Source: Halorussus limi (GTDB taxonomy: Archaea > Halobacteriota > Halobacteria > Halobacteriales > Haladaptataceae). From it: DNA of 64,000 bases. Location of the stretch: contig NZ_CP096659.1 of the NCBI RefSeq assembly GCF_023238205.1, positions 806,001 through 870,000 of the forward strand, read 5' to 3'. Both the position numbers and the translations under genes were made by a program. The notes beneath the pieces are model-generated. The model was not told where the DNA came from, searched no databases, and was given only the letters and a program-made list of their open reading frames with translations. This document shows, piece by piece, positions 31,246 through 47,121 of the stretch (the first letter of the stretch is position 1; each line of letters starts with the position of its first letter).

Positions 31246-31330
31246 TGCGCCGGCCGGGAATTGAACCGGAGCCAGACGTTCCGACTCGCTTCGCTCGCGG
31301 GCTGCGTCTGGCAGGGTTCAGATTCCCTGC
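31246..31330. other. tRNA-derived remnant left of the element
   Basis: 31246-31269 is, on the minus strand, the 3' end of a tRNA (a T-arm and a CCGGCGCA acceptor end) almost identical to the last part of the neighbouring tRNA-Gly, but with no 5' part. 31270-31311 form a CCAGACG/CGTCTGG inverted pair, and 31311-31330 is another T-arm-like perfect hairpin (GCAGGG/CCCTGC around TTCAGATT). This looks like a decayed attachment site. Confidence 0.5.
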
Positions 31331-31359: not shown

Positions 31360-31430
31360 TGCGCCGACCGGGAATTGAACCCGGGCTATGAGCTTGGGAA
31401 GCTCATGTCCTACCACTAGACCACCGGCGC
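31360..31430 (-). tRNA. tRNA-Gly (CCC), left copy
   Basis: A full cloverleaf reads on the minus strand. The acceptor GCGCCGG pairs with the UCGGCGC end, the anticodon stem AUGAGC/GCUCAU holds the loop UUCCCAA (anticodon CCC), and the T-arm is CCGGGUUCAAUUCCCGG. Discriminator base is A; CCA is not encoded. It has a near-identical copy at 47051-47121, differing at one T-loop base. This copy's 5' side faces the element. Confidence 0.93.
31360..31430. repeat. Left attachment repeat of the integrated element
   Basis: These 71 bases are repeated directly at 47051-47121 with one difference (A at 31374 against G at 47065). Similarity ends sharply on both sides. The repeat is a whole tRNA-Gly gene and marks one boundary of the element. 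Confidence 0.85.
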
Positions 31431-31515
31431 GTCTATACCTAAATTCGCCCCTGTCGTGCGATTTTCTGGTATCCGCATCAAGACTCAATGAGCCTGTTCT
31501 ATATAAAAACCCGGA

Positions 31516-31536
31516 CCATAAGCTCCCGGCTTATGG
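31516..31536. repeat. Hairpin near the left end of the element
   Basis: CCATAAGC and GCTTATGG form an eight-base-pair stem with a five-base loop. It lies about 90 bases inside the left attachment repeat, downstream of a TATA-like tctatataaa. It could be a terminator or a recombination-protein site. Confidence 0.35.
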
Positions 31537-31583
31537 TGACTCGTTGAGATATTTATACTCGGTAGTATCTTCCACCTCTGTCG

Positions 31584-31817
31584 CTACTCAAATGGGTTTG
31601 CTACCCCACAATCCGTACAGAACCTAAGTTCTGACTCACTACCAACTTCGTTCGAGTCGGCTGGAATGTGCGCCACCGGAAAGTCTTCTAGGTCCCGTGG
31701 TCGGTTCTGAAGATGGTGACACGTCTGGCTTGCGTGGAATAGTGGGTCCTCGCGGTATACACAAAACCAGAACCGTTTCATGTCTACCTGAGCTTCGTCG
31801 TTCGCGTTCGCCGCCAT
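31584..31817 (-). CDS. Small Cys/His-rich protein of the element
   Basis: A 77-residue protein with a central TCHHLQ and a C-terminal CTDCG, so a CHH...CxxC zinc site is plausible. A near-perfect TATA box (31839-31846) lies 26 bases before the ATG, indicating a leaderless transcript and supporting that the gene is real. The remaining sequence is acidic and polar. Function unknown; small zinc proteins of this size are common on haloarchaeal mobile elements. Confidence 0.6.
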   Translation of the reverse strand: MAANANDEAQVDMKRFWFCVYREDPLFHASQTCHHLQNRPRDLEDFPVAHIPADSNEVGSESELRFCTDCGVANPFE

Positions 31818-31838
31818 ATCGCTTGCACAACGCCCTCC

Positions 31839-31846
31839 TATATAAA
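31839..31846 (-). promoter_or_regulatory. TATA box for the small zinc protein
   Basis: The minus strand reads TTTATATAG centred 26 bases before ATG 31817. No other start fits as well. Confidence 0.65.
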
Positions 31847-32090
31847 GGTCGGATTAGATACTATTCACCGTGTTTAAACAAGAACTACTAGACCAACAGA
31901 ATTTCCGTCGTCTTCGTTCATTGGAGTATACATTCCCACTTTGTACGGGCCTCTATCGCGCCTACAGGCGAGAGAGTAGGGGTAGGCTCGGGAAGGAGGG
32001 ATGTATAGTTAGAACCGCGTAGCATCCATCTCTCGTCCATATTCAGAGCTCGTAGAGGCCATAAATATACTCGGTTCGCGGATTCCTCTT

Positions 32091-33797
32091 TTACAAGAAA
32101 TCTGAGAGCGAAGAAGGCTTGTGCTGGTCTGGGATTTTTGGCTCCTCTTTTCTAGAACTAGTGATTATGTTTTTCTTCCGCAACCACGGAACAAGATGCT
32201 CAAATCCCCATGCGACACTGGGACGTGAGACATCATTTGATTGGCCTTTCGTCTGGTCAGTAAGTTTCCGAAGTCGGTCCTCTGAAGGATTAGATGCTGC
32301 GATACGGAGAACGATGTTCATCGGTTGGTCACGTCCTTGCTTTCTGTATTTTATCCTGTTCTGTGCCAATTTCACTGGATGGAAGTTAAATCGATAGTTT
32401 ATGTCCTCTACGATAAATTGGAGCGCATATATCCATAGCAGAGCTAAGCGCCCGTATTCCATGTCCTGTGCGTTCGAGTTTGGCGGAAGCTCATCATGTA
32501 ATCTCTGCAGTTGTGATGGAAGTTTATCTATTTCCCAAGTGGCCTCCCAGATATCATAGATTGCATCTAAGAAGGCTCTTCCACTTTCTTCACAGGCTAA
32601 AGCACGTTGTGTATCACGGAATACGGAGAAGAGCTCTGGTTCCTCATTACCTATTGCCCACATGAAGTCATCTGAATCTTTACCACGGCCACCCTCACCA
32701 CTTGTTCGCTTGACGACAACCTGACGGCTATTAACCGTAATTAGACAGTGTTCCCGTGGACCTGATTCAAATGTAGAGATTTTTTTATACCCTGGCACTT
32801 CATCTCGTGCCCATTCCGTTTGTGCAAGTTTACGCCGCTCTCGGGAAGCTTTATAATGTGGTTTTGGATTATCTTTATGAAGTGGGTGAAGCTTCAATAG
32901 AAAATAGATGGATGAGCCACTACTATGCTCGGTAGCGATACTCAGCCCAAGTGTGCTACAACGTCGTAGTAGCTCATTGATTTCCGATTCCTGAATACTA
33001 TCCTCAATTGCTAAAACAAGACTACCTGGTGACACAGCACCGGAGTTGAACGTAAGAGTATTCCCACTAATACTATACTTTGGCCCCTGAGTGACCTCAT
33101 AAGTAGGTTTTAACCGAGTATGGCTCTCTACACTCATATTACTACCTGTAGGTAGTCGGCTACAGAGTGACCAAATTTTCTTAAAACTACTATCGACCGA
33201 TGTGTTGGAATCTGCATTTATAGGGAAATATATGGAGTAAATCGGTCCACTGGGGTCCATAGTCTGCCATCCATCCCGGTGAATTTCATATCTGTCATTG
33301 CTGTCACCGTCAAGGAAGGGGCCGTGCTCAAAGGGATGGGAAATATTAAAAACCCCTCGTCTTTCAGGGGGTGCATCTTGAAATACGTCCGGTGCGGTAG
33401 TTGCTTGCTCGTCCCAGAACGCCCCGACGTTATCACAATATCTTACATCCGGATTAGTAATATCGGAAATCTCTCCGACAGCCTCTATAGTAGCGGCTCG
33501 CTGTGCTACTATCTCGATATTAATCTCCTCGCCCAATGGAACAATAAAACACGGGTTCTCTTTACGGAAACAATTAATGACTGTCTCTACATCTCCGATG
33601 TTCCCCTTTGAGAGGTTTGAGAGCATTGAGTCTCTACCAGAAACGGGATAGCGGTTAACTTGACCGTGAGAAAACGACCATCCAAGTTGGTTAGTGTCAT
33701 AGAGTTGGTTCTTTATTAACCACGCAAATTCCCGGCGAACGAGAGATTCCGATACCTCTTTTCGAGGGCGAGCAAGGTAAAGGACAGGAGCAGGCAT
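32091..33797 (-). CDS. Uncharacterised 568-residue protein beside the restriction-modification genes
   Basis: A 568-residue soluble protein with no signal peptide or membrane helix. I cannot assign a domain. Residues 1-100 are mixed alpha/beta (MPAPVLYLARPRKEVSESL). Residues about 185-350 are beta-rich (YSIYFPINADSN, LVLAIEDSIQESE). Residues about 400-500 are helical (FRDTQRALACEESGRAFLDAIYDIW, YGRLALLWIYALQFIVEDINYRF). The C-terminus is basic and ends PSSLSDFL. It is on the same strand as the methyltransferase (166 bases apart). It might be a nuclease or an accessory of the system, but this is a guess from position. Confidence 0.7.
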   Translation of the reverse strand: MPAPVLYLARPRKEVSESLVRREFAWLIKNQLYDTNQLGWSFSHGQVNRYPVSGRDSMLSNLSKGNIGDVETVINCFRKENPCFIVPLGEEINIEIVAQRAATIEAVGEISDITNPDVRYCDNVGAFWDEQATTAPDVFQDAPPERRGVFNISHPFEHGPFLDGDSNDRYEIHRDGWQTMDPSGPIYSIYFPINADSNTSVDSSFKKIWSLCSRLPTGSNMSVESHTRLKPTYEVTQGPKYSISGNTLTFNSGAVSPGSLVLAIEDSIQESEINELLRRCSTLGLSIATEHSSGSSIYFLLKLHPLHKDNPKPHYKASRERRKLAQTEWARDEVPGYKKISTFESGPREHCLITVNSRQVVVKRTSGEGGRGKDSDDFMWAIGNEEPELFSVFRDTQRALACEESGRAFLDAIYDIWEATWEIDKLPSQLQRLHDELPPNSNAQDMEYGRLALLWIYALQFIVEDINYRFNFHPVKLAQNRIKYRKQGRDQPMNIVLRIAASNPSEDRLRKLTDQTKGQSNDVSRPSVAWGFEHLVPWLRKKNIITSSRKEEPKIPDQHKPSSLSDFL

Positions 33798-33963
33798 GAT
33801 TGATGTCTAGGAGTATCACTAAGTACTCTTGGGTTCCTCAAATACCTACTGAAAGAATGTTCCCCTGATGGTGTTCTGGTAGGTGATGGTACAATCTACT
33901 ACACATCCATTAGAACTCGGTTTCATGGCGAATATTTTATTGGTTGTTTGGGATTCGCGGTAG

Positions 33964-36246
33964 CTAGAAAAATGATGTGGAATAACCTTCGTCATCAGAA
34001 TCAATGGTGGCGTTACCGTAATTGTTTATACGCCGTATGGTGTATCGTGGTTGGTCTGGCTCCGCCTCCTCAATGATGAGCCGGAGAGGATTAATTACCG
34101 TTGGTCGAGTCCGGGTACAATATTTCTCTGACCACCTACTTGGATTTGACGTACACATCTCCCACAGTTGGCTATTGAAGTCAAACTGCCGTGTGTACTG
34201 TTCTGGTCGACCTTCCGTATAGAGATAGAAAGCATCAGTCGGCCATGCAAGCTCATCATTTTCGATGCACTCATCGAAAGACGTAACAGAAAGCCACTCT
34301 CTCTCAGCGTCAAGTCCGTGCTTTCGGAGCTTCTTTGCGTTACTCGATGGGGTCTCTGCATGAAGATACTTAACAGCGGCTTCGAGTACATCTGCACCAT
34401 CAGAAGCTGCCTCCTGTGAAGCGAAAAGGAACGACTGCTTGACCGGCGCGCGGTCCTCGTCTTCAGGGGGCATTCCATCCTCAGTCTTCGGTTGAAGAAC
34501 GACTGTGTGAATCCCAAACCGGTCTCCATGCGTCCGCTGAAGGTCAATGAGCGGTTCAATAACACTTGGCCGTGTTTCCGTTTCGAGGGTGATGGATTGC
34601 CTGATAGCAACGATTAACGCACCAAATAATACTGCGTCTCGGTCTGGGCCGTCCGTTTCTTTTGCTGTACCCCACTCACCTAGCGTTGCTTGTGTGGGGG
34701 TATCGAGGTCACTAACACATTCTGTTAGGGTACTAGCTGTGACTCTTTCACTGAGACGAGTGAATAATTCCACTGGTGATAGTTCATCAAGTAGTTCCTC
34801 TGCTATCGCTTCAAATTCACCACTGGCGATGTCTGCCTCGGTATTTATAGACGTTCCTTGACCTAATCCTTGTATCACATTCGGCTCGTCGAGTGTCTCT
34901 AATAGCGCAGCTACTATCGCGGCCGGTGAACTTGAAGCTGCATCTATCAAGCTATCTAACTGCGATTCACTCCCTGAAATAACATCTTCGCAAGAGATAT
35001 CCAGGTTCTCAAGAAGTACTTTAATTGGTAGGGTAGAACGCAGTGCTGCTATTAACGGGTCGGCATTTGTTGTTTTATTATTGCTACACCATCTCTCAAC
35101 CACACTCTCTGTATCAGCTTCCGCGAGCGCCGACCATAGGTCATGAATGTCCTTAACGTCCCGAGCTTGACTTCGTAACGTAGTGAAGAGCCAGTTTACA
35201 TAGCCGTGATGCCGTAAGGCCCATGTCGCCTGTGCATATCGTTGTTTCCGGTCTTCTAAGGAGAGGTGTTCTGATTCACCGCCGAACCATGCTTGCTCAA
35301 TTGATTCATGGCGGCTTCCATGAAGCGAAATATAGTCTGGGTTAAGTTCAAAGCCGATAGTACGGCGGTCCATAAGGTCGCCAACTGCTAGCGTTGTCCC
35401 TGTACCAGCGAATGGGTCTAAAACAGTATCTCCTGGTTTAGTGGACATCTCAATCATTCGCTCAACAAGCGCAGCAGGAAAGACGGCATCATGATTTAGG
35501 TCGTCATCACCCCATCCACCGGTCATCTCGGCAGGAATGTCCCATACGTTCGGGTAGGTCGCACCGTCCGGTGAATAGTTGTATGTGTCGCTTATCCACC
35601 ATTGCTTCAACTGCGTTGGGTCGTAGATTCGAGCGTCTTCGTTGACCTCGAACTCCTCCGATTTTTTGAATATTAGCACATACTCGAAGACATTACGAAC
35701 ACCGTCACGCTCGTCATTCGACTTCTGTTTGTCCCAGATAACCTCATTATGGCAAATCCAAGAATCATCAGTTGGGTCGTAGCGCCATTCATCGCCGTCT
35801 TCATGGTCTTCAATATTTGTGCAGTAGAGTTCTCCAGTCTCACCGTTTCGACGTGCACGGTCCCCGCATTTCTCGCAGTGCCGCTTGTTTTCAAGATTTT
35901 CCAGTGCCTCAATAATATGGGACTTTATATCGACGATTCGGCCATTAAACTGCCTATTATTAATGTTCAACCATAATGACCCATCTTCGGCAGTTACCTC
36001 GTAAACGTTTTTGAAGACCTTACGAAGGTCATCGAGATACTGGTCATAACTATCCCCTGAGCCAATCTGTTCATCATATCCGTAATCTTTAATATCCGCA
36101 TAAGGGGGAGACGTGACAGTTGCGTCAACTAAAGAGCTAATTTCATCATCGTCAAAATAGTCCGCCAGAGTCTTAGCTAGTTTTCGGGAATCCGCTTGAT
36201 AAACCCCATAGCGGTCATCCGACACAAGAGAATCATTGGAGGACAT
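33964..36246 (-). CDS. Beta-class DNA methyltransferase (TSPPY) with a large C-terminal extension
   Basis: A 760-residue protein. The catalytic TSPPY is at residues 45-49, a zinc-like CEKC...C cluster near 128-146, and the cofactor motif DPFAGTGTT near 283. Motif IV before motif I is the beta-class order; TSPPY favours N4-cytosine, although N6-adenine is not excluded. After about residue 330 come over 400 residues of acidic, mostly helical sequence I cannot assign. I chose ATG 36246 (MSSNDSL) because a TATA box lies about 32 bases upstream; the frame extends further but is not protein-like. It is divergent from the nuclease gene. Confidence 0.88.
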   Translation of the reverse strand: MSSNDSLVSDDRYGVYQADSRKLAKTLADYFDDDEISSLVDATVTSPPYADIKDYGYDEQIGSGDSYDQYLDDLRKVFKNVYEVTAEDGSLWLNINNRQFNGRIVDIKSHIIEALENLENKRHCEKCGDRARRNGETGELYCTNIEDHEDGDEWRYDPTDDSWICHNEVIWDKQKSNDERDGVRNVFEYVLIFKKSEEFEVNEDARIYDPTQLKQWWISDTYNYSPDGATYPNVWDIPAEMTGGWGDDDLNHDAVFPAALVERMIEMSTKPGDTVLDPFAGTGTTLAVGDLMDRRTIGFELNPDYISLHGSRHESIEQAWFGGESEHLSLEDRKQRYAQATWALRHHGYVNWLFTTLRSQARDVKDIHDLWSALAEADTESVVERWCSNNKTTNADPLIAALRSTLPIKVLLENLDISCEDVISGSESQLDSLIDAASSSPAAIVAALLETLDEPNVIQGLGQGTSINTEADIASGEFEAIAEELLDELSPVELFTRLSERVTASTLTECVSDLDTPTQATLGEWGTAKETDGPDRDAVLFGALIVAIRQSITLETETRPSVIEPLIDLQRTHGDRFGIHTVVLQPKTEDGMPPEDEDRAPVKQSFLFASQEAASDGADVLEAAVKYLHAETPSSNAKKLRKHGLDAEREWLSVTSFDECIENDELAWPTDAFYLYTEGRPEQYTRQFDFNSQLWEMCTSNPSRWSEKYCTRTRPTVINPLRLIIEEAEPDQPRYTIRRINNYGNATIDSDDEGYSTSFF

Positions 36247-36273
36247 GTGTTTCCCTACGCTTTCTCGGCAGAC

Positions 36274-36282
36274 ATTATTTAT
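36274..36282 (-). promoter_or_regulatory. TATA box for the methyltransferase gene
   Basis: The minus strand reads ATAAATAAT about 32 bases before ATG 36246. The nuclease gene on the other strand has only a weak AT-rich box (near 36348-36356). A stronger methyltransferase promoter would let protection precede cutting. Confidence 0.5.
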
Positions 36283-36378
36283 GCTACGGTCTGTTGCCCT
36301 CTTAGTGTACACTACTGTTAGGAAAGCGATGGTAACGAAGAAGCAGGATTGATAACCCCGGATGTTTCTGAATAGAGT

Positions 36379-37227
36379 ATGACCGGCCTTACAAACGGGG
36401 TGACGGCTTCCCGTGAGGAGATTCTCCAAGCTACAAACAGACTTTTAGGGAAGACGTTTGGTGATATCGACGCAGAAATCAACGGAATGGCCGATGATGA
36501 GCGTGCACGGTCGAAGCACGGTGTCGCAAATGTTATCGAAGAGGGGTATTTCGATATTGCTATTAATAACGATGCACGACCGGATTTTACAGACGAGGGT
36601 ATTGAACTTAAAGTAACACCCCTTCGACGGACAGGAGGAAATGAACTTCTCCGGCCTAAAGAGCGCCTTGTTCTTTGTATGTGTGACTATACCGAAATCG
36701 CAGAAGCAGACCACTGGACAGAGGTACCTGCGCTCCAGAAAAAGCTCTCTTCCGTTCTCATAATCTGGTATATTCACATTGTTGGTCAGGACCGTGCCAC
36801 GTACCCTATCGTGTGGTGGGATTTATGGGAGCCAATGGACGACCCACGATGGCGAGAACAATTACAGGAAGACTTCGAAATATGCAAAGAAAAAGTCATG
36901 AACGGCGAGACACCAAGTGAAAAGCACACAACCTTGCTCGGCACGTGCCCGAAGCACAGTGGCGGGTATGACCATGAAGACCCTGCCTCGTCACCCCGCC
37001 ATGCCCGTGTCTCCTCAGACGCACACCCTATACTCGACTATGCCGAAAAACGGGGCTGGTCGATTGGAATGGGTGGTGCAATGGAGATTTTCCAAGAGGC
37101 AACTGGCCTACAAAAGGCGTCTCGGGGTAGGGCGAGTGGGATTGAAATCGAAGAGCTCTGGGGAGAAGCTCAAAAGAAGGCCCCGCATGATGTCCGCAGG
37201 TTCTCAGAGTCGTTCCCAGAACTGTAG
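36379..37227 (+). CDS. Sau3AI/MutH-like type II restriction endonuclease
   Basis: A 282-residue nuclease. The MutH/Sau3AI fold signature is clear: KHGVANVIEEGYFDI (helix with an acidic residue), then PDFTDEGIELKVTPL with the catalytic D-E-x-K (Asp about 69, Glu76, Lys78), then RPKERLVLCMCDY. Both MutH and Sau3AI recognise GATC, so a GATC specificity is likely but not proven. The protein is near the length of MutH rather than of the duplicated Sau3AI. It is convergent with the Dam-like gene and divergent from the beta-class methyltransferase. Confidence 0.85.
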   Translation: MTGLTNGVTASREEILQATNRLLGKTFGDIDAEINGMADDERARSKHGVANVIEEGYFDIAINNDARPDFTDEGIELKVTPLRRTGGNELLRPKERLVLCMCDYTEIAEADHWTEVPALQKKLSSVLIIWYIHIVGQDRATYPIVWWDLWEPMDDPRWREQLQEDFEICKEKVMNGETPSEKHTTLLGTCPKHSGGYDHEDPASSPRHARVSSDAHPILDYAEKRGWSIGMGGAMEIFQEATGLQKASRGRASGIEIEELWGEAQKKAPHDVRRFSESFPEL

Positions 37228-37265
37228 AGAACGGCAATAGTCAATTGTATTATCTCTATTTGGGA

Positions 37266-38090
37266 TTATTCACAGACCTCATCTGGGTCGTAATTCGTAT
37301 AGCAAACTTCTTGCCGTGAACCAGTTCCCTTACCAGCAAGCGTCTTTTCCTCATCCGAATGCAGCCACCATCCTTCATAGAGATTGTCAAATAGTTCACA
37401 TTCATAACCGGATACTGCACAATAACCCTCCACGTCTTGCAATGTCTCTGCTAGCTCTCGGTGGTCCTCGGTATTCATTTCGTAGTGATATTGACCGGTG
37501 CTGGTACGTGCTTGAGGGGGATAAGGTGGGTCAAGGTAGAACAGAGTCTCACTATCGTCATAATCACTTATAATCTCTAAAGCTGGGCGATTTTCGATTT
37601 GGACTCTTGACCGCAATCTACTGTCAGTCATTCGGTCGTGAGTTTGGCGAATTTGGTCAATTCGGTGTTCCCATGATGAGAGGACTGCTGCTTTCCCACG
37701 ACGAATATTCGAGATGTCACGTCGCCATGACCCACCTTCTACCGCATTGAAGGCTTGAGCGTTTCGGACAAGAAAGTAGAATGCTCGCAAGACATTATCC
37801 TCGGGACAGCGTTTGTGAGCCTCTTCGAACAGCTGTCGTGAGTAGAAGGATTTGTCGGTTAGAAGTGTTAGAAGTTCGTCCTCCTTTCTGAGGACCACAT
37901 CAAGGAAATTATAAAGCTCACTATCAATGTCGTTCCAAACTTCGATGGGTGAAGGTTCTCTACTCCAGAGGGTGACACCACTCCCACCATAAGGAAGGAC
38001 AAATCTCTTGACATTCGGTAGGAGTGAGTGGAGAAAATTTAGATGATTATACTTGCTGCCATAACGTTGGATGGGCTGAATCCGTGCCAT
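37266..38090 (-). CDS. Dam-like (D12 class) N6-adenine DNA methyltransferase
   Basis: A 274-residue protein of the D12 family. The start IQRYGSKYNHLNFL matches the family N-terminus. The cofactor loop reads FVLPYGGSG where FxEPFxGSG is usual, and the catalytic motif YLDPPY lies near 190. The closing segment (SGYECELFDNLYEGW) also fits. Dam and DpnM of this class methylate adenine in GATC. It lies 38 bases from the convergent nuclease gene. With the beta-class enzyme it makes a two-methyltransferase set like that of the DpnII locus. Confidence 0.88.
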   Translation of the reverse strand: MARIQPIQRYGSKYNHLNFLHSLLPNVKRFVLPYGGSGVTLWSREPSPIEVWNDIDSELYNFLDVVLRKEDELLTLLTDKSFYSRQLFEEAHKRCPEDNVLRAFYFLVRNAQAFNAVEGGSWRRDISNIRRGKAAVLSSWEHRIDQIRQTHDRMTDSRLRSRVQIENRPALEIISDYDDSETLFYLDPPYPPQARTSTGQYHYEMNTEDHRELAETLQDVEGYCAVSGYECELFDNLYEGWWLHSDEEKTLAGKGTGSRQEVCYTNYDPDEVCE

Positions 38091-38974
38091 AATTCGTTTT
38101 AAGGATGATAACTTTCTTTAACGGATTCTATATAGTTCTCCCGCTCTCGGTTCTTCCGAGTCTATGGTTACTAACTAGAGTGCGAGAATAATGAAAGTTC
38201 CGCTAGTTTCTGAATAAAATGTTCTCTTCTGCCAGCTCAGTTTACCTATTCTTCATTGAAGTAGATTGTTATTCAGAATTAAATCTCAGAGCAGAATGAG
38301 AGTTCGTTCTGGTGAATACGAGAGGTGCTCGCTCTTTTACTCTCCTGTATCCCTGTGCTCTCATCACCGACCATGAACGTATATATTTTAATACGAGTAG
38401 AAGAGGGTAGAGCCACAGTCGGTGAGGAGAATTGAAGATTTGCGCTGATATGACAGAGGGATGGAGTTCGCATAGGCTGTCCCTAAACAAGTTAGCATTC
38501 TCACCGAGGAACCGAGCTGTAACGAACGGTGAGATGGCCTGTGGGATTGCGGCCTTCCATCACTGAAAATTGAAACCGAATGGTCGCTCGCCGGAGATAC
38601 TCCACGTCTCGCTCACCCGTTCAAACCACCAGAGCCGAAGAGACAGACGAACGAGACCGTGTTTCTAATATAGCGAGGGAGAGCATGACCTTGACAGAGA
38701 AGATACTTCTGACGTTCCTCAGTGAGATTACCACCTCTCGGTTTCATCGAGCTTCGAGACGTGAGACTCCCAATCTATACGTGACCGAAGCGTCCGAGCG
38801 TTCAACCGCTTCTCTCGGCGCTGCACCTACCGAAACATCAGACACTCGTATCAGTGGGCCAGCGCGGAGTTGAACCACGCACGCATCGGAGGCCACCATG
38901 TCAGATGAAGCAGGAACGGACGGACCTCCCATGACCTACCCGGATGGCCCGCGAGTCGCATCACGGCTCCGCTG
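38091..38974. other. Gene-poor region of the element, holding a tRNA-like sequence
   Basis: About 880 bases between the Dam-like gene and the glycosylase-like gene. Several short frames occur, for example 38580-38873, but none has a promoter or a convincing protein pattern. 38855-38950 contains a degenerate tRNA-like sequence. The rest looks like decayed or regulatory DNA. Confidence 0.4.
38855..38950 (-). other. tRNA-like sequence, possibly a degenerate or intron-bearing tRNA
   Basis: On the minus strand the two ends pair as GGGCCA with TGGCCC followed by A, with 96 bases between outer ends. A normal T-arm (CGTGG, TTCAACT, CCGCG) precedes the acceptor end. The D-arm and anticodon arm do not fold convincingly, even if an intron is allowed. 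It may be a decayed tRNA, an old attachment site, or a tRNA with an unusual intron. Confidence 0.45.
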
Positions 38975-39628
38975 TTACCGTGAGGATTCTACGAGGTCTA
39001 CTATCGCCTCTTGCACGACCGGCACCCATTCGCGTTCGGCGACCGTCCGCTGTGCCCAGTGAAGCGAGATAACCACGGGCGGTGTCGTTTTGAACCCCGA
39101 ATGCCCGTACTCTTCTGAGACCTGGACTCGGCGTGCTTTATCTTCCGTGACCCCGAGCACCTGTAGGGTTCGTCTCGTCGCCTGCATTCCGAGCGTGACG
39201 ACACCGACCGGGTTTACGGCCTCTATCTCTGCATCGAGGTAGGCGCGGCAGTGCTCAAAACTCTCCTCTGTCTCCGCCGCCGGAATCCCACGACTAGTAT
39301 CCTTCTGCGTCGGACACTTGATGGAGTCGGTTATCCAGACGTCGTCGATACTGAGTTCCATAGGGTCGAGCAACTTCTCGATGAGTTGCCCGCCCTGCGC
39401 ATTATTGAATCGCGGCAGCCATTCGTCGTTGTACTCCGCCCAGTCGTCGTGCTGATTCCACTCAACGGGATGCCGAGGTTCGTCAGTGACGAAGAGTAAA
39501 TCGCCCCCGGGGTTCGACAGGCCCGGATTCACGAACGACCCCCCGGAGCATTCGTGAGCACTACAGCCCTCGCAGTGCCCCTCCCCCCGTCGTGCATTCT
39601 CAACGGTTCTCTGTAGTCGGCTGTGCAT
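38975..39628 (-). CDS. Uracil-DNA glycosylase-family protein (family 4-like)
   Basis: A 217-residue protein. Four cysteines match the iron-sulfur pattern of family 4 enzymes: Cys19 and Cys22 (HCEGC), a Cys in IKCPTQKDTS and one in ESFEHCRAYLDAEI. The fold motif VGVVTLGMQATR is also present. The catalytic loops are divergent: VTDEPRHPVEW replaces GEAPG, and SLHWAQR replaces the HPS loop. It could act on a different base or be inactive. A TATA box (39651-39657) lies 27 bases before the ATG. Being on the element suggests DNA repair or modified-base removal. Confidence 0.8.
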   Translation of the reverse strand: MHSRLQRTVENARRGEGHCEGCSAHECSGGSFVNPGLSNPGGDLLFVTDEPRHPVEWNQHDDWAEYNDEWLPRFNNAQGGQLIEKLLDPMELSIDDVWITDSIKCPTQKDTSRGIPAAETEESFEHCRAYLDAEIEAVNPVGVVTLGMQATRRTLQVLGVTEDKARRVQVSEEYGHSGFKTTPPVVISLHWAQRTVAEREWVPVVQEAIVDLVESSR

Positions 39629-39891
39629 CGAGCATCGCTACAATCGTTCCGAATAAAGATGTAACTCTGGTGTTAGATACGGATACTCCCGATATTAAGG
39701 AAGACGACCGTTTTCTCTTCGATACCGAATATCACGTCAGAATACTAGAAATAGAGTGATGACACTCAACCGAGGGTAGGCGGGTGGAAAAATCCGCTAC
39801 TAGTATACTAGTAGTAGAAATTTCCGGACCCCCGGCTGCTTATCAACCGTTCGGTCGATTATCGAAAATGGGGTAGGCTCGGCACTTCGGA
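39629..39891. other. Intergenic region with an 18-base palindrome
   Basis: The gap between the glycosylase-like and helicase-like genes holds the glycosylase promoter (39651-39657) and a perfect palindrome (39797-39814). A plus-strand frame (39592-39759) ending DTEYHVRILEIE looks weakly protein-like but has no good start. Confidence 0.35.
39797..39814. repeat. Perfect 18-base palindrome CTACTAGTATACTAGTAG
   Basis: This is a complete self-complementary sequence, AT-rich and flanked by G/A- and C-runs (gtggaaaaatccg and agaaatttccggacccccgg). It lies downstream of the replication-like protein gene and upstream of the glycosylase-like gene. It is a candidate operator or part of a replication origin. 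Confidence 0.5.
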
Positions 39892-42231
39892 TTATATGAG
39901 GCTGCGTAGCTCATCCGTGTTCATAGAGTAGATTTTGCTATTATTCGGAGTATTTCCGATATGGTCGACGATACTCGCTTCGGCGAGCTCGTCCATCCAA
40001 TTTCGCACCGTCCGGTCCGTACAGTCGTCTCCGACGAGCTCGTAAAGCTCAGATGTCGTAATTTCGATTTCCTCCTCGGGATACCGCTCCACAAGGGGCT
40101 TTACGAGGGTGTCAATGGCATTCTCCGGGACCGGCGGGTCGATAAACTCCTCCCAGGAGACGAACTCGTCAATAGGGAGCTCGGTCGGCACGTTCGAGAG
40201 GAGATAGATATGCACGGGGTCGTCCGAAAGAATCGGTCGTGGACGGTGAACGGCTTGTACGAATTCGTTTTCTCGGACCTCTCGAAACAACGTCCCCGTC
40301 AACCCGGTGAACGCTTTCGTCTGGACTGTCCATCCGTGCGATTTTCCCGGAGGCCGAATGATATCTCGTTGAATCGGAGGATAGGGCGACTCCTCCCAAC
40401 TACTCCGTTCTTCGCCACCTACCTCGATGTCGGGATGAGTTTCCGCTAAGAGTTCGGCCTCTCGTCGGAGGTCGTCTATCCGAGGGTGAAGTGCGCCGAT
40501 GCACATTACGGCATCGCAGTCCATCATCGAGTTTAGCCCTCGTAACGCGCCCCAGTTCTCGACGACCCCGTTATCGGGGAAATCAAAATGATATTCAAGA
40601 GACTGTTTAATGACGAAGAGCGGTTTGCTATGTTTCCGTCCGGCCATGTCGATGGAGCGTTGAATCCGTCGTGCGAGCCTTCTATCCTCTTGAGCTGCCT
40701 TTTTGATGATTCCTGCGTGATACTGCCCATTCGAAATCTGCGTCACACGGGCATTCATCTCAATCGGCTCATCGCCGGTCACAATTATCTCGTCTTCCGA
40801 GACCCCGTAGGCAGCGGCGAGTTTCTCGACTTCGCCGGTAGCATCAAGAACGAGGATATCCTTCGGCATCTCGTCGTAGCCGGTCATCGACATAAACTTC
40901 AGTCGATAGTCTACGGAGGTAGAACGAGTGGCCGCATCGAAAGCGAATGAACTCGTTCGATGGCGCGAGCGCCTACCTGGGGGGCGGAGAATGGAATTAG
41001 AGTCCCTCTCCCAGTCACAGTCCTCTGATTCACATCTACCGCCAGCAGTAACTACACCACATCTCGGACAATAATGTAGGGTAGCCGGTCCCGCAATTGC
41101 CTCTTTGCATGCGGTCGGTGCGAACCCGGTTTCCGCTATCGCTGCAAGAATAGCATCAAAGCAGGGCTGGGTTCCATTCCAGTTGTCTCGGACCTGTGAG
41201 TCGAGGGCTTCATTATATGCAACTTTGAGTTCGGTTAGTGTCTCGGCAGTATCGTTCTCTATCTCGACCTTCGGCTGCGCACACGCTGATAGATTTCCGC
41301 TGTCAATTCCATTTTTCAACTCGGTTTCTATCCAGTCCGCAATCGGGTTTGCGAGAGGGTCCGAAAGTCCATTGAGGAGGTCCGCCGCCTTCTGGAGGTC
41401 GGCGGTCGTCCATACGGCGATATCCCGTTTGAAACGTGGTGTCTCGTCAATGATAATGTCTCGCTCGTCCTCAAACCGCTCCTGATACTCGTGAACGCCC
41501 ACAATCCACCGATTCTCGTCCACACGGTCGAACTGGTGTGACCATTGACACTCCCACCCTATCCCCGGCGTCATCAGGTGGGCATACTCATGGTCAACGA
41601 GCGCTGCAAGAATTTCGAACCGCTCGCGGATATCGTCATCCGAGTCGCGCTCGTATACCGGACACATCAATTCTTTCTCATCCCCATGCTGTTCACAGGG
41701 TTCATTACCGGCGTCCATGCAACACGTATGCACGGGCTGGTTCATCCCTTTAAGATGGAAGTAGGCGTCTTCATCGATATTATCATCCGTAAGGAAATCC
41801 CGTACCTTCCGGTGCGTATTGAATAGGAAGGCGTGTGGCCGGTCGAGATTCGCAGCGGCGAGTCCGAAGCTTACCGTCTTCCCTATCCCCGGACTATACT
41901 TACAAAGCATCGGCCTCTCTGCTTGGATGAATTGAGGATAGAACTCCGATTCAATCTGGTCACGGCGTTCTTGAATATTCGGAGGCTGAAAATCTCGCGT
42001 TTTCGGGTAGGTCGGTCGAATTGTTTCCGGTTTCCATGTAATCCCTTTCTCCTTCAGTTGCTCTTGCGTACGAACCTGTATATCGAGGGCCATCGGTTCG
42101 CCGCGTTCGCGAAGCCCGAGTTCAATCGATGCTAGTCGGAGAGGCCAAGGAAAGGCGTCGTGACTAAGAGTGCTCACGTTCCCTTCTGCCTCCTTAGAGG
42201 ACCACAGTCGGTGTTTCGAGGATGAAACCAT
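39892..42231 (-). CDS. SF2 helicase-like replication protein of the element
   Basis: A protein of up to 779 residues. Walker A-like SPGIGKTVSFGLAAANL is near residue 115. A Walker B-like IIIDETPRF is near 258. A zinc cluster CPRC...CESEDC lies near 393-410, and GLTGTLFREVRENEFVQAVHRPRP resembles SF2 motifs V-VI. The C-terminus is a winged-helix-like domain (TDRTVRNWMDELAEASIVDHIG). The start is uncertain: ATG 42231, GTG 42177 (preceded by AAGGAGG, overlapping a small ORF stop) and ATG 42093 are all possible. Such proteins replicate haloarchaeal plasmids and viruses; this role is inferred. Confidence 0.75.
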   Translation of the reverse strand: MVSSSKHRLWSSKEAEGNVSTLSHDAFPWPLRLASIELGLRERGEPMALDIQVRTQEQLKEKGITWKPETIRPTYPKTRDFQPPNIQERRDQIESEFYPQFIQAERPMLCKYSPGIGKTVSFGLAAANLDRPHAFLFNTHRKVRDFLTDDNIDEDAYFHLKGMNQPVHTCCMDAGNEPCEQHGDEKELMCPVYERDSDDDIRERFEILAALVDHEYAHLMTPGIGWECQWSHQFDRVDENRWIVGVHEYQERFEDERDIIIDETPRFKRDIAVWTTADLQKAADLLNGLSDPLANPIADWIETELKNGIDSGNLSACAQPKVEIENDTAETLTELKVAYNEALDSQVRDNWNGTQPCFDAILAAIAETGFAPTACKEAIAGPATLHYCPRCGVVTAGGRCESEDCDWERDSNSILRPPGRRSRHRTSSFAFDAATRSTSVDYRLKFMSMTGYDEMPKDILVLDATGEVEKLAAAYGVSEDEIIVTGDEPIEMNARVTQISNGQYHAGIIKKAAQEDRRLARRIQRSIDMAGRKHSKPLFVIKQSLEYHFDFPDNGVVENWGALRGLNSMMDCDAVMCIGALHPRIDDLRREAELLAETHPDIEVGGEERSSWEESPYPPIQRDIIRPPGKSHGWTVQTKAFTGLTGTLFREVRENEFVQAVHRPRPILSDDPVHIYLLSNVPTELPIDEFVSWEEFIDPPVPENAIDTLVKPLVERYPEEEIEITTSELYELVGDDCTDRTVRNWMDELAEASIVDHIGNTPNNSKIYSMNTDELRSLI

Positions 42232-42320
42232 TCATCCGACCGACCGCCTACCTCCCTCAGCGTGTCAATTCTTTGGGTCTGCTTCTGACGTGATGTGTTC
42301 TTTCGGTTGGTTTCGTTCAT
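42174..42320 (-). CDS. Possible 48-residue ORF overlapping the helicase start
   Basis: ATG 42320 opens a 48-codon frame whose TGA overlaps GTG 42177 (GTGA) in the helicase frame. AAGGAGG (42189-42195) lies inside it, 11 bases before that GTG, as in translational coupling. The peptide is polar and basic (MNETNRKNTSRQKQTQRI...). A TATA-like box is at 42385-42394. Could be real or chance. Confidence 0.3.
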   Translation of the reverse strand: MNETNRKNTSRQKQTQRIDTLREVGGRSDEWFHPRNTDCGPLRRQKGT

Positions 42321-42529
42321 GGCTGCCAGCAGATGTCGCTGACGAGACGGCCATGAATCGGAAGACGAGAGCCCGAACCGGATACCTTCTTATACCCGGG
42401 ACCTTTACTAGTGGTAGAGGCTATCGCCTTACGGGCATGGCCTACCCGCGTTTCAGATACTTTGTCGGTCGAGGCGATTGGGACCCGCACGACCGACCGC
42501 TTTCTCCGAACTACTTCCAGATAGTGTCG
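42232..42529. other. Upstream region of the helicase-like gene
   Basis: This stretch holds a TATA-like box on the minus strand (TATAAGAAGG, 42385-42394) and the possible small ORF. A plus-strand frame (42170-42565) looks like a shadow. No other gene seen. Confidence 0.35.
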
Positions 42530-42658
42530 TTAGCTGTCTTCGCCATATCTCTCAGCCCACATTGAGATTAGCTCGTCAAAGGTTCGGTCCCCTTTCTTCT
42601 CTTTGACGTTTTGATAGGTGTCGGCGTACACCGGGATGGGCGATTGTCGTTTTCCCAT
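42530..42658 (-). CDS. 42-residue RHH-antitoxin-like protein
   Basis: ATG 42658 begins a 42-codon frame ending at TAA. The protein starts with a beta-like stretch (MGKRQSPIPVYADTYQNV) and ends with a helix (RTFDELISMWAERYG), resembling small ribbon-helix-helix or antitoxin-like proteins. A TATA box (42682-42689) lies 24-31 bases upstream, so the gene is probably real and leaderless. No toxin gene is adjacent. Confidence 0.55.
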   Translation of the reverse strand: MGKRQSPIPVYADTYQNVKEKKGDRTFDELISMWAERYGEDS

Positions 42659-42681
42659 ATGTGGAACTAATACGATAGCGG

Positions 42682-42689
42682 ATATAAAT
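42682..42689 (-). promoter_or_regulatory. TATA box for the 42-residue protein
   Basis: The minus strand reads ATTTATAT about 27 bases before ATG 42658, the spacing of a leaderless haloarchaeal gene. Confidence 0.6.
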
Positions 42690-42894
42690 CTAACTTTGTT
42701 CGATTATTGTTCGGAATTACTTTTCATGTTCAAGAATTCCTCCGGGGTAGGGGCGAGAATCTACGATATGGGGTTTCTCTACAATGGGGGACACTATTTA
42801 AAACGAAACTGCCGACTCAGAATAGTTATTTCCCTGTCAGAAGTAGCCCTACCACCCGAAAATCTCTTTGCCCATATTTCCGTCATTAACACTA

Positions 42895-43893
42895 ATGGCC
42901 GATACTAGCGGATGGATGGTTCGCGCAGGAAATGATAACGAGTTGGTTGACGAGTTTACGGAAGAGTCAATCGCTGCAATCGGATGGGAGGAAGTAGGCG
43001 ACCTTTCTAGTGCTACGACTCGCGAAGAAGTGAAAGCCCGATATCGGGATGCAAACCCGAATCACTCTAACTACCGGGTAGCCGTGAATGCAGGCCAACT
43101 TTTTCGGTTTGCGCATGTCATGGAGGAAGGCGACCTCGTTTTGACATATGATAAGTCTACCCGCGTATATCACGTTGGGACCGTTGAAGGGTCCTATTTA
43201 TGGAAACCGAATGGCTATCCGGAAAGCTATCCCCATGTTCGTAGAGTAAATTGGTCGCAGACCGTTTCACGAGATGAATTTAGCACTCCTGTTAAGAACA
43301 CCCTCGGCAGTGTTCTCACGGTCTTCTCGCTTGATGACCGGCTCGATAAAATTGAGACCGTTCTTTCCGGAGAGCAGGACGACGATGTAGACGAAGAAGA
43401 TGATGAAGAGACACCACCTTACTTCCAAGAGGTACAGGCGACCGCAGAAGAGCTAATTTCAGATATTATCGCGAGCATCGACCCCTTCGATTTCGAGGAA
43501 CTCGTTGCGGCCCTTCTACGGGCAATGGGGTACGACGCGACGACGACTACCAGTGGCCCCGACCAGGGTGTAGATGTCGTCGCTCATCCAGACGCTCTCG
43601 GGTTTGAAGCGCCGTATATTAAGGTACAGGTGAAGCATCGACGAAGTTCAACTGGCGGTCCGGATATGCGGGAATTTAACGGTACCCTCGGGTCGGGTGA
43701 GAAAGGGCTCTATATCTCTACTGGCGGCTTCACAAGCGACGCTGAACAGGCCGCCGAAAATACCTCTCAGCGCGTCACACTCCTCGATAGGGACGATTTC
43801 ATTGACCTTCTCCTCCAACACTACGAAGACCTCGAACCGGAATATCAGTCGATGGTTCCGCTCAAGCGAGTGTACATCCCAACTGAACAGTAA
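42895..43893 (+). CDS. Mrr-type restriction endonuclease with an EVE/PUA-like N-terminal domain
   Basis: A 332-residue protein from ATG 42895. The C-terminal part is an Mrr-type nuclease: FEELVAALLRAMGYDATTTT, then the catalytic set DQGVDVVA (Asp about 226) and KVQVKHR (Lys about 247). The first 140 residues (WMVRAGNDNELVDEF, RFAHVMEEGDLVLTYDKSTRVYHVGTVEG) resemble EVE/PUA-like readers of modified bases. Mrr enzymes cut modified DNA (type IV restriction). An acidic linker joins the halves. A TATA-like catattt lies near 42869-42875. Confidence 0.85.
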   Translation: MADTSGWMVRAGNDNELVDEFTEESIAAIGWEEVGDLSSATTREEVKARYRDANPNHSNYRVAVNAGQLFRFAHVMEEGDLVLTYDKSTRVYHVGTVEGSYLWKPNGYPESYPHVRRVNWSQTVSRDEFSTPVKNTLGSVLTVFSLDDRLDKIETVLSGEQDDDVDEEDDEETPPYFQEVQATAEELISDIIASIDPFDFEELVAALLRAMGYDATTTTSGPDQGVDVVAHPDALGFEAPYIKVQVKHRRSSTGGPDMREFNGTLGSGEKGLYISTGGFTSDAEQAAENTSQRVTLLDRDDFIDLLLQHYEDLEPEYQSMVPLKRVYIPTEQ

Positions 43894-43934
43894 AAGGGAT
43901 AGTGCTGAACAGATGGCGCGCATTCCGTGAAGAC

Positions 43935-43943
43935 AATATAAGG
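43935..43943 (+). promoter_or_regulatory. TATA box for the nucleotidyltransferase-fold gene
   Basis: AATATAAGG is centred about 29 bases before ATG 43968. It supports that start over the longer frame beginning at 43902. Confidence 0.55.
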
Positions 43944-43967
43944 GTTGAGAGTTCCTCTAGTGCCATA

Positions 43968-44345
43968 ATGAGGCTGAGTGAAACCAATCTACGGAGGCTT
44001 CGCGACCTTTGTTTGGAACATTACAGGGAGGAAGAGTCGAATATTCGGTCTATCATCCTGTATGGCGGAGCCGCAAAGAACTTTGTAGGCGATGAACACG
44101 AACCGGGAGATTTCGATTTAAACGTGTTCTTCTCAGACCAGGCCAGTATCAGTTCCACACATGGACGGCCGGAAATCATCGGGGAATACGATGACTTGGA
44201 GGTAGAGGTCATGCGGAATAGAGTACCGGATGGAATGAGTGTAAGGCAGTATGTCGAAGCTCAAGATTCTAAACGCTGGCGTAGGATTAGAGAAGAACCA
44301 ATTGTCTGCATCTACCCCGGCATTAAACGAGAAACATGGGAGTGA
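43968..44345 (+). CDS. Nucleotidyltransferase-fold protein (MNT-like)
   Basis: A 125-residue protein. The start LYGGAAKNFVGDEHEPGDFDLNVFF is the G-G/S...DFD pattern of the minimal nucleotidyltransferase fold, with acidic metal ligands in DFDL. The rest is mixed alpha/beta. MNT proteins often pair with HEPN toxins; none is adjacent, but the element has other defence genes. It could be a tRNA- or protein-modifying enzyme. A start with a TATA box was chosen. Confidence 0.65.
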   Translation: MRLSETNLRRLRDLCLEHYREEESNIRSIILYGGAAKNFVGDEHEPGDFDLNVFFSDQASISSTHGRPEIIGEYDDLEVEVMRNRVPDGMSVRQYVEAQDSKRWRRIREEPIVCIYPGIKRETWE

Positions 44346-44528
44346 AGGTATCGTTTACCTTACCTCGTTGTTGGATTGCTGGTTGACTGGAGGACTAGCA
44401 GTCCCTTCACCTCATTCGGTCGAGCGCATCCCGGCCACCGCCCCTACAAAAGCGAAGAGAGTCCGGATTCGTTGCAAAGAGGTGGTCCCTACTGGTCGAG
44501 AGGATGTCCTTTAATCGGATTAGGGTCG

Positions 44529-45686
44529 TCAGAATAAATCATCCAGTGTTGCTGCGTTTTTTAACTTTCCTAAATCCGTATATCTATGCGAGGTAAGCCT
44601 GGTGTTGCCCCGTCCAATTGTAGGCTTTAACAGACGGAACGAATTTTCTACCAAATTTAAAACCTTTCCGCCGTTCTCGGGTGAACCATATCCATCTAAT
44701 GTGTACTCTAAGTCCACCTCTGATGGGTTCAAGATATCTTTTATTTTTCCGAAATGCTGCACCCTTTGTGTATCCCGGCTATATAGTGCCAGGTATTGCG
44801 GGTTCTCTGCTACTCGTGGATATCCAAATGCGTTGTTAATCTGGATGAAGGATAAGCTACAGCCTCCTTTAGGAGTAATAACTACACTATCCGATTCCCT
44901 ACCCTGTAGAGTTGCACGAATGGCTGGGCTTGTTGGCTGAATGTTTGGACTAGAATTAACCCACTCGGAGCGAGCGTGGAAATAAAACCCCACTATTACC
45001 GAAACACCAATAGCATAAAGAGAGACGCTTGATGCGATAAATCCCGCAATGATAAAATATATACCGACAGCCAAGATAAGGGCAATAGAGAGATATTCCC
45101 ATATTGGAATTCGACCACCGTCATATTGGAATGTATCGTCCCCTAATTCCCATTCAATATACCCTCTTCTTATGTTTTCTAATAGGGAAGAATAGATAGT
45201 TAGGATTTCAGCAAGAGTAAATTCGCCCGTCGGAATGGATTCTGATTGCAGGAGCCCTACCCTGATAAGGTCTAAGAAGTTCCTAAATCCCTGTTCACCA
45301 AACTCAGAAAAGGAGACGTTGTCTCTTACACGGCTTTGAAGACCCTCAAACTTTTCACCAGACCAAATAACCTCTTCATTTATTTCGTCATTCACCTCAT
45401 ATTCTCCCATAACTAACTCTATATCCTCTATATGGGCTTCTAACGCTTCGACTACCCTTGTAAACTGCTTTGAAGAATACTTCGTCCGTCGATAAAGATG
45501 ACGTACTAAGGGACTTGGTGATTCAAGACTATCTTCGAATTCTGTAAAAACCCCATACAGTTCTGAAAGATATTCTATATGGGCAGAAGTATCAGTTAAT
45601 AATTGTGGCAGGTTGACCGTTCTTCCAAAATTTTCTAAAGTAACAACGGGAGGAATTTCCTCAATCTCATCCTCGAAATTCGCCAT
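44529..45686 (-). CDS. Two-helix membrane protein with a possible PUA-like C-terminal domain
   Basis: A 385-residue protein. Residues 1-190 are polar and helical. Two membrane helices (197-217 and 219-237) follow. Residues 297-385 (YLALYSRDTQRVQHFGKIKDI, then HRYTDLGKLKNAATLDDLF) resemble a PUA/ASCH-like module seen at the end of some restriction-associated proteins; I make this link from pattern only. If right, it would place a nucleic-acid reader at the membrane. It is the gene beside the integrase and convergent with the nucleotidyltransferase gene. Confidence 0.65.
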   Translation of the reverse strand: MANFEDEIEEIPPVVTLENFGRTVNLPQLLTDTSAHIEYLSELYGVFTEFEDSLESPSPLVRHLYRRTKYSSKQFTRVVEALEAHIEDIELVMGEYEVNDEINEEVIWSGEKFEGLQSRVRDNVSFSEFGEQGFRNFLDLIRVGLLQSESIPTGEFTLAEILTIYSSLLENIRRGYIEWELGDDTFQYDGGRIPIWEYLSIALILAVGIYFIIAGFIASSVSLYAIGVSVIVGFYFHARSEWVNSSPNIQPTSPAIRATLQGRESDSVVITPKGGCSLSFIQINNAFGYPRVAENPQYLALYSRDTQRVQHFGKIKDILNPSEVDLEYTLDGYGSPENGGKVLNLVENSFRLLKPTIGRGNTRLTSHRYTDLGKLKNAATLDDLF

Positions 45687-45754
45687 GAGAGTTCTGAACT
45701 GTTAAAATGCAATAATACTTTCTCTATCCTCCACGAAAACAGTAGAAGTCAGCC

Positions 45755-46876: not shown

Positions 46877-46953
46877 CCCTACGCCCTCTGTCGATTCGGC
46901 CGACGCCGGATTTGATATGAGCCTAACAATTCTCCGAATCGCTGTACGGCGGA

Positions 46954-47018
46954 GGGTTCGAAATTTGAACCCGGTGTATAAGCTTCGATTGGCATGTTCC
47001 GTTCACGTCCTACGGAAC
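46954..47018. repeat. Two hairpins between the integrase gene and the right repeat
   Basis: GGGTTC/GAACCC (46954-46972, seven-base loop) and GTTCCGT/ACGGAAC (46996-47018, nine-base loop) form stems next to each other. The sequence between them (cggtgtataagctt) is tRNA-Gly-like. Such paired sites near attachment regions are candidate integrase arm-binding sites. Confidence 0.4.
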
Positions 47019-47050
47019 CAGAAAACTACGGGACGGGGATTAGTTACAGA

Positions 47051-47121
47051 TGCGCCGACCGGGAGTTGAACCCGGGCTATGAGCTTGGGAAGCTCATGTC
47101 CTACCACTAGACCACCGGCGC
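47051..47121 (-). tRNA. tRNA-Gly (CCC), right copy
   Basis: A complete tRNA-Gly with the same stems and anticodon CCC as the left copy, differing by one base in the T-loop (C instead of U). Its 5' side is chromosomal, so it is probably the original gene whose 3' end was replaced by the element. Both copies look functional. Confidence 0.93.
47051..47121. repeat. Right attachment repeat of the integrated element
   Basis: Direct repeat of 31360-31430 with one mismatch (47065 against 31374). It lies next to the integrase gene and marks the right boundary. Confidence 0.85.

What the first reader, a model, noticed from the sequence alone, without database searches (positions are those of the whole stretch)
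33964..38090. Two-methyltransferase, one-nuclease system resembling DpnII but with different parts
DpnII-type loci pair a Dam-like methyltransferase with a second one and a GATC nuclease. Here the Dam-like D12 enzyme is joined by a beta-class TSPPY enzyme (perhaps N4-cytosine) and a Sau3AI/MutH-fold nuclease. Sau3AI itself is blocked by cytosine, not adenine, methylation, so the beta-class enzyme may be the true protector.
Basis: partly seen in the sequence, partly recalled or inferred. Interest (0 to 1): 0.65.

Follow-up and report, generated by a model that had tools for sequence, protein, structure and literature searches.

The report
Haloarchaeal GATC restriction cassette, swapped methylase
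A mobile piece of DNA in a salt-loving archaeon carries what looks like a relative of the DNA-cutting enzyme Sau3AI, guarded by an unusual type of DNA-marking enzyme, and this mobile DNA contains not one copy of the four-letter site (GATC) that such enzymes cut.

Summary
The three genes are real and correctly classed, but they do not form a DpnII-like unit. The nuclease (36379-37227) has an intact MutH/Sau3AI catalytic site; its model matches the MutH-DNA complex (Z 20.9) and Sau3AI (Z 18.8). It is single-domain (282 aa), whereas Sau3AI has two domains. Of 76 other Sau3AI-family loci with a called nuclease gene, 71 have a C5-cytosine methyltransferase beside it and none has a D12 or beta-class one. 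Here, and in the two closest haloarchaeal loci, a beta-class TSPPY enzyme (probably N4-cytosine) takes that place. An uncharacterised 568-aa protein follows it here and in one of those loci. The D12 gene looks like a passenger: absent from one related locus, beside its own DpnII-type nuclease in the other, paired with SacI-type nucleases in its closest relatives, and lacking the Dam signature. All lie in a 15.7-kb tRNA-Gly-bounded element with 0 GATC sites (64 expected); other low-GC regions of the genome keep about 0.71 of expectation. That supports a GATC target without proving it, since core chromosomes of this genus and haloviruses also avoid GATC. Best reading: a Sau3AI-like GATC cassette with its methylase exchanged. 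No activity has been shown.

The parts
31360..31430 (-). tRNA-Gly(CCC), left copy; left boundary of the element
   Evidence: direct repeat of 72 nt, 99% identical to 47050-47121
31431..47050 (.). integrated element; 0 GATC sites in 15,620 bases against 64.3 expected
32091..33797 (-). uncharacterised 568-aa protein (unk568), downstream of the beta-class methyltransferase; relatives in G099 (35%) and G352 (40%)
   Evidence: no Pfam, NCBIfam, PADLOC or PDB match
33964..36246 (-). beta-class (permuted) TSPPY DNA methyltransferase, 760 aa, probable N4-cytosine type, with a C-terminal region of unknown function
   Evidence: PF01555, PDB matches to N4-cytosine and other beta-class enzymes, alignment A3
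36247..36378 (.). 132-bp divergent intergenic region between the methyltransferase and the nuclease; AT-rich TATA-like ATAAATAA upstream of the methyltransferase start
36379..37227 (+). single-domain MutH/Sau3AI-type nuclease, 282 aa; catalytic residues D69, E76, K78
37266..38090 (-). D12-class adenine methyltransferase without the Dam GATC signature; probably a passenger
   Evidence: PF02086, alignment, neighbourhoods of relatives
45755..46876 (-). tyrosine recombinase (integrase) of the element
   Evidence: PF00589
47051..47121 (-). tRNA-Gly(CCC), right copy; right boundary of the element

Best explanation
This is a mobile type II restriction-modification cassette of Sau3AI-like logic. A single-domain MutH/Sau3AI-fold nuclease cuts unprotected GATC in incoming DNA. 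Host GATC sites are protected by a beta-class (permuted, TSPPY) methyltransferase that most likely puts a methyl group on N4 of the cytosine, in place of the C5-cytosine methyltransferase found with nearly all other members of this nuclease family. The two genes are divergent, and an uncharacterised protein (unk568) follows the methyltransferase. The neighbouring D12 adenine methyltransferase is most likely a passenger or the remnant of another system. The element itself has been purged of GATC, so it could enter cells that cut GATC and would survive exposure to its own nuclease before protection is established. Shown here: gene content, conserved catalytic site, fold match, gene-order conservation, pairing statistics, GATC absence. 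Inferred: GATC cleavage, N4-cytosine methylation, matching specificity, the role of unk568.
For: Catalytic DF...GIELK is conserved from E. coli MutH through Sau3AI relatives to this protein. The model matches MutH-DNA complexes and Sau3AI at Z 18.8-20.9, well above BcnI/MvaI at about 9. 71 of 76 family loci with a nuclease ORF carry a C5 methyltransferase within 5 kb, and none carries D12 or beta-class genes. Nuclease and beta gene are adjacent in the window, G099 and G352; unk568 follows in the window and G099 in the same order. MutH Tyr212, which matters for reading methylation status (PMC3848065), is Ser here and Ser, Thr or Arg in the other haloarchaeal copies. GATC is the only one of 256 tetramers missing from the element, 0 against 64.3; the next lowest ratio is 0.52. 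Other low-GC regions of the same genome have about 0.71. No other Dam-like gene was found in this genome.
Against: GATC avoidance is also strong on the flanking chromosome (14/172.7) and in most same-genus genomes without the nuclease, and haloviruses lack GATC too (PMC7230728, PMC2194725), so the absence does not single out this nuclease. In the nuclease sub-clade at about 55% identity the beta gene is absent; those copies sit beside DndFGH or in a BREX-5 locus. N4 versus N6 chemistry rests on the TSPPY motif and family comparison only. The nuclease lacks Sau3AI's second domain, and one near-invariant Lys of the C-terminal motif is Gly.
Confidence: 0.6

Rival explanations
1. DpnII-like logic: both the D12 and the beta-class enzyme methylate GATC and jointly protect against the Sau3AI-like nuclease.
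For: All three genes are adjacent here, and all three families also occur within about 5 kb in G352. The D12 gene in G352 is beside a DpnII-family nuclease, which in known members cuts GATC.
Against: The D12 gene is absent from the G099 locus and sits beside its own nuclease in G352. The six D12 relatives at about 40% identity pair with SacI-type nucleases. The D12 protein lacks FNVPFG, which E. coli Dam and the D12 enzymes of Pbe loci have. MutH Tyr212 is lost.
Confidence: 0.15
2. The nuclease is a plug-in restriction component that works with several self-marking systems (N4-methyl, C5-methyl, phosphorothioate, BREX), or cuts modified GATC, rather than belonging to one RM pair.
For: Close relatives (about 55%) sit beside DndFGH in Halorubellus salinus GX3 and inside a BREX-5 locus of Haladaptatus QDMS2; the G352 copy is beside PbeA/PbeC. 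Phosphorothioation in haloarchaea occurs at GATC (PMC6459918). Dnd neighbourhoods are known to recruit other nucleases and cytosine methylases (PMC10853773).
Against: C5-methyltransferase genes lie about 10 and 19 kb away in those two genomes. Defence genes cluster in islands anyway. In the three closest loci the beta gene is the direct neighbour.
Confidence: 0.15
3. The nuclease and beta enzyme act on a sequence other than GATC; the element's lack of GATC reflects a virus-like history in hosts with other GATC restriction.
For: Haloviruses of several kinds lack GATC (PMC7230728, PMC2194725). An unrelated G241 locus with a MvaI/BcnI-type nuclease also has 0 of 110 expected GATC. A near-invariant Lys of the Sau3AI C-terminal motif is Gly here.
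Against: The structurally characterised relatives MutH and Sau3AI both recognise GATC (established knowledge; PMC3848065 for MutH), and the fold and catalytic match is close.
Confidence: 0.1

Closest known systems
Sau3AI type II restriction-modification system (nuclease family NF040973 / PF02976 with a C5-cytosine methyltransferase)
   Same: MutH-fold nuclease with the same catalytic residues; no Tyr at the MutH Tyr212 position; an adjacent, probably cytosine-modifying methyltransferase, often divergent
   Different: Single-domain nuclease of 282 aa instead of about 460-490 aa with a C-terminal MutH-like domain; protector is beta-class TSPPY rather than C5-class; an extra 568-aa protein
DpnII / MboI type system (D12 Dam-like enzyme, second methyltransferase, PF04556 nuclease)
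   Same: A D12 and a beta-class methyltransferase gene near one nuclease gene; probably the same GATC target for the nuclease
   Different: The nuclease is MutH-fold, not PF04556; the D12 enzyme lacks the Dam signature and is not conserved with the others
CxC-DndE (PbeABCD) systems with permuted N4-cytosine methylases (PMC10853773)
   Same: The beta-class methyltransferase has about 40%-identical relatives beside PbeA/PbeC-type genes in several haloarchaea
   Different: No PbeA or PbeC match in this window; a Sau3AI-like nuclease and unk568 instead
MutH mismatch-repair endonuclease
   Same: Best structural match; same single-domain size class and catalytic site
   Different: Adenine-methylation-sensing Tyr212 replaced by Ser; methyltransferase neighbour; on a mobile element

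Membership tests
Sau3AI-type RM system | MutH-fold catalytic domain with D...ExK site | tested here: met
Sau3AI-type RM system | Second, C-terminal MutH-like regulatory/DNA-binding domain | tested here: not met
   protein ends at 282 aa; NF040973 score 121.9 against a cut-off of 300; best PDB alignment ends near Sau3AI residue 220
Sau3AI-type RM system | Adjacent C5-cytosine methyltransferase | tested here: not met
   beta-class PF01555 neighbour instead; 71 of 76 other loci have C5
Sau3AI-type RM system | Cleaves GATC, blocked by cytosine but not adenine methylation | not testable with these tools
   only indirect: GATC absence and loss of Tyr212
DpnII-type RM system | DpnII-family (PF04556) nuclease | tested here: not met
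   nuclease is PF02976; the DpnII-family protein of G352 finds no significant match in the window, best E 0.14
DpnII-type RM system | D12 methyltransferase with the Dam GATC signature FNVPFG | tested here: not met
   but the DpnII-paired D12 of G352 also lacks it, so this does not by itself exclude GATC
DpnII-type RM system | Second methyltransferase conserved with the nuclease and first methyltransferase | tested here: not met
   nuclease and beta co-occur in 3 of 3 closest loci; D12 is absent in G099 and sits beside its own nuclease in G352
CxC-DndE (PbeABCD) system | PbeA and PbeC genes in the locus | tested here: not met
   tblastn of G352 PbeA and PbeC against the window finds nothing at E 1
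N4-cytosine methyltransferase (beta class) | TSPPY motif IV and permuted motif order | tested here: met
   TSPPY near residue 45, FAGTGTT near residue 280; PDB matches include N4-cytosine enzymes
N4-cytosine methyltransferase (beta class) | Product is N4-methylcytosine | not testable with these tools
   needs SMRT sequencing or mass spectrometry

The most novel reading that the evidence does not exclude
Haloarchaeal MutH-like nucleases are a modification-agnostic GATC effector: the same single-domain enzyme family is paired with N4-cytosine methylation, C5-cytosine methylation, Dnd phosphorothioation or BREX in different genomes, with unk568 replacing the lost second domain in the N4-cytosine version.
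Probability: 0.15. Interest if true: 0.75.

Novelty: new variant of a known kind. Interest (0 to 1): 0.5.

Why it matters
If true, a restriction nuclease family normally tied to C5-cytosine methylation has been re-paired with a different class of methyltransferase while keeping its target, showing that the protecting chemistry can be swapped as long as the same base is shielded. It would also supply a concrete GATC nuclease to help explain why haloviruses and many haloarchaeal genomes avoid GATC, which is so far attributed to restriction in general.

Tried and rejected
(1) D12 as Dam: rejected as unsupported, since the FNVPFG signature is missing while E. coli Dam and Pbe-linked D12 proteins have it. 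(2) A decayed partner nuclease for the D12 gene in the window: tblastn with SacI-type, DpnII-type and other partner proteins found nothing. (3) GATC avoidance as a direct footprint of this nuclease on the host: not tenable, because same-genus chromosomes without it avoid GATC as well. (4) Fold of unk568: a single-sequence model failed (mean pLDDT 35); relatives from whole-genome searches are not on that tool's list of allowed inputs, so no alignment was used; a profile search of the PDB gave nothing significant. (5) Relatives in viral contigs: none for the nuclease or unk568. (6) Relatives outside the haloarchaea by a phylum-wide search: none in 294 other sampled genomes; the wide pattern scan found mostly bacterial two-domain Sau3AI relatives.
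Full report
What is there. The window is haloarchaeal chromosome (G000 C1:806001-870000). A low-GC stretch (about 0.50 against 0.66-0.68 in the flanks) lies between two nearly identical tRNA-Gly(CCC) genes at 31360-31430 and 47051-47121, with a tyrosine recombinase at its right end (45755-46876). The neighbouring NAD synthase was found in all 12 other same-genus genomes sampled; in the 11 whose locus was fetched the tRNA-Gly stands just upstream of it, and in G394 (L224) the left-flank gene, the tRNA and the NAD synthase are contiguous, which is an empty site. So the finding sits in an integrated element.

The three genes are confirmed: a beta-class N6/N4 methyltransferase, a MutH/Sau3AI-type nuclease and a D12 methyltransferase. 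The methyltransferase start should be ATG 36246; the listed TTG start at 36429 would overlap the nuclease, and the alignment with seven relatives begins at the ATG.

The nuclease. phmmer finds Sau3AI (E 5e-10) and MutH (6e-5) in the PDB. In an alignment with E. coli MutH and Sau3AI-family proteins the catalytic DF...G[IV]ELK is invariant. An AlphaFold model built on 31 sequences (mean pLDDT 80) matches the MutH-hemimethylated-DNA complex (Z 20.9, 2.9 A over 212 residues) and Sau3AI (Z 18.8, 2.4 A over 189); the next family, BcnI/MvaI, is at 8-9.5. Sau3AI and its bacterial relatives have a second C-terminal domain (about 460 aa in all); this protein ends at 282 aa. At the position of MutH Tyr212, reported as important for reading DNA methylation status (PMC3848065), the window protein has Ser, other haloarchaeal copies Ser, Thr or Arg, and most Sau3AI-family proteins Ser or Cys. 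That agrees with the known insensitivity of Sau3AI to Dam methylation (established knowledge).

Which methyltransferase belongs to it. A wide scan recovered 80 loci of the family, mostly bacterial. In 76 with a called nuclease gene, 71 have a C5-cytosine methyltransferase within 5 kb and none has a D12 or beta-class gene; three of the remaining five are near a contig end. A second haloarchaeal nuclease clade (about 35% identical) is likewise flanked by C5 methyltransferases. In contrast the three closest loci, the window, G099 (71% nuclease identity) and G352 (69%), have the beta-class gene next to the nuclease, and in the window and G099 the order nuclease(+), beta(-), unk568(-) is identical. 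In G352 an unk568 relative lies about 15 kb away, in a group with an AAA_5 ATPase and a GHKL ATPase, near a broken second nuclease copy. The nuclease is far more conserved (about 70%) than the beta domain (40%) or unk568 (35%) between the window and G099.

The D12 gene does not follow this pattern. It is absent from the G099 locus. In G352 it is adjacent to a DpnII-family nuclease (PF04556, E 1e-38), so it has a likely partner of its own there. Its six relatives at about 40% identity in L087-L092 each stand at the head of a two-gene pair whose second protein is a SacI-family nuclease: the one scanned matches PF09566 at E 2e-48, and the other five are 48-79% identical to it. The FNVPFG segment present in E. 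coli Dam and in the D12 enzymes of Pbe loci is missing. I therefore treat the D12 gene as a passenger. A caution: the DpnII-paired D12 of G352 lacks the segment too, so its absence does not prove a different target.

GATC. The element has 0 GATC in 15,620 bases where a second-order Markov estimate gives 64.3; no other tetramer is absent, and the next lowest is CTAG at 0.52. Other low-GC samples of the same genome keep about 0.71 of expectation (C1 at 3.0 Mb 88/124, C3 80/131, C4 543/723, C5 148/230); at that rate the chance of none is about 1e-20. But high-GC chromosome samples are also depleted (0.03-0.33; local flanks 14/172.7, with no GATC until 60036 on the right), which gives a chance of 0.005 against the local flanks and 8e-5 against the chromosome samples. 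Most same-genus genomes without this nuclease show the same chromosomal depletion (0.06-0.34; G162 0.62, G024 0.98). Haloviruses are known to lack GATC (PMC7230728, PMC2194725). So GATC absence in the element is real and specific, and fits a GATC nuclease, but it is shared with virus-like elements and is supporting evidence only. Extrapolating the samples, the genome still holds several thousand GATC sites, on the main chromosome too, and no other Dam-like gene was found; if the nuclease is active on GATC, one of the two island methyltransferases must protect them. The assembly is rated 4.55% contaminated, so C4 and C5 might not belong to it; the chromosomal sites do not depend on that.

Wider setting. 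Relatives of the beta enzyme (about 40%) lie beside PbeA/PbeC-type genes (identified by profile in G352, by similar N-termini elsewhere); published analysis of such CxC-DndE systems already describes permuted N4-cytosine methylases there (PMC10853773). Two nuclease copies at about 55% identity sit next to DndFGH (Halorubellus salinus GX3) and inside a BREX-5 locus (Haladaptatus QDMS2). Haloarchaeal phosphorothioation occurs at GATC (PMC6459918). This leaves room for the reading that the nuclease works with several marking systems; C5 genes 10-19 kb away and general clustering of defence genes are simpler explanations.

Conclusion. What is unusual is the exchange of methyltransferase class, the single-domain nuclease and the unknown third protein. 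Everything about activity is inferred.

Noticed in passing
L099, L101-L106, L025, L026, L023, L093, L098 (C-terminal ends): C-terminal PIP-box-like tails (Q..h..a in the last 20 residues) are enriched in haloarchaeal methyltransferases and nucleases: 19 of 57 against 9 of 595 other ORFs (Fisher p 1e-15, not corrected for relatedness). One of the 9 is the DpnII-type nuclease of L021. This suggests tethering of RM enzymes to the PCNA clamp. Window proteins have only degenerate forms (unk568 SSLSDFL, beta YSTSFF).
   Followed up: partly
L096 (G241:C3:49000-65000): A locus with a MvaI/BcnI-type nuclease, a weak beta-class and a D12 methyltransferase plus an MCM-like gene has 0 of 110 expected GATC while its host chromosome sample has 0.92: another GATC-purged element with one nuclease and two methyltransferase genes.
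   Followed up: partly
31246-31272: A third, partial 27-nt copy of the tRNA-Gly 3' end lies outside the left boundary, perhaps a scar of an earlier integration.
   Followed up: no
42868-43893 (+): Mrr-type restriction endonuclease matching the PADLOC candidate defence family PDC-S02 (E 6e-114), followed by a nucleotidyltransferase-like gene: a second defence candidate in the same element.
   Followed up: no
38975-39628 (-): Uracil-DNA glycosylase (family 4-like) gene inside the element, next to a 779-aa protein without family match that has a Walker-A-like GIGKT.
   Followed up: no
L112:6514-15327 (G352): Relative of unk568 in a group with an AAA_5 ATPase, a GHKL ATPase and a 488-aa unknown, close to a broken second copy of the nuclease: unk568 may serve other systems too.
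   Followed up: partly
31431-47050: CTCGAG is absent from the element (0 against 8.3 expected); a possible second avoided site, untested.
   Followed up: no
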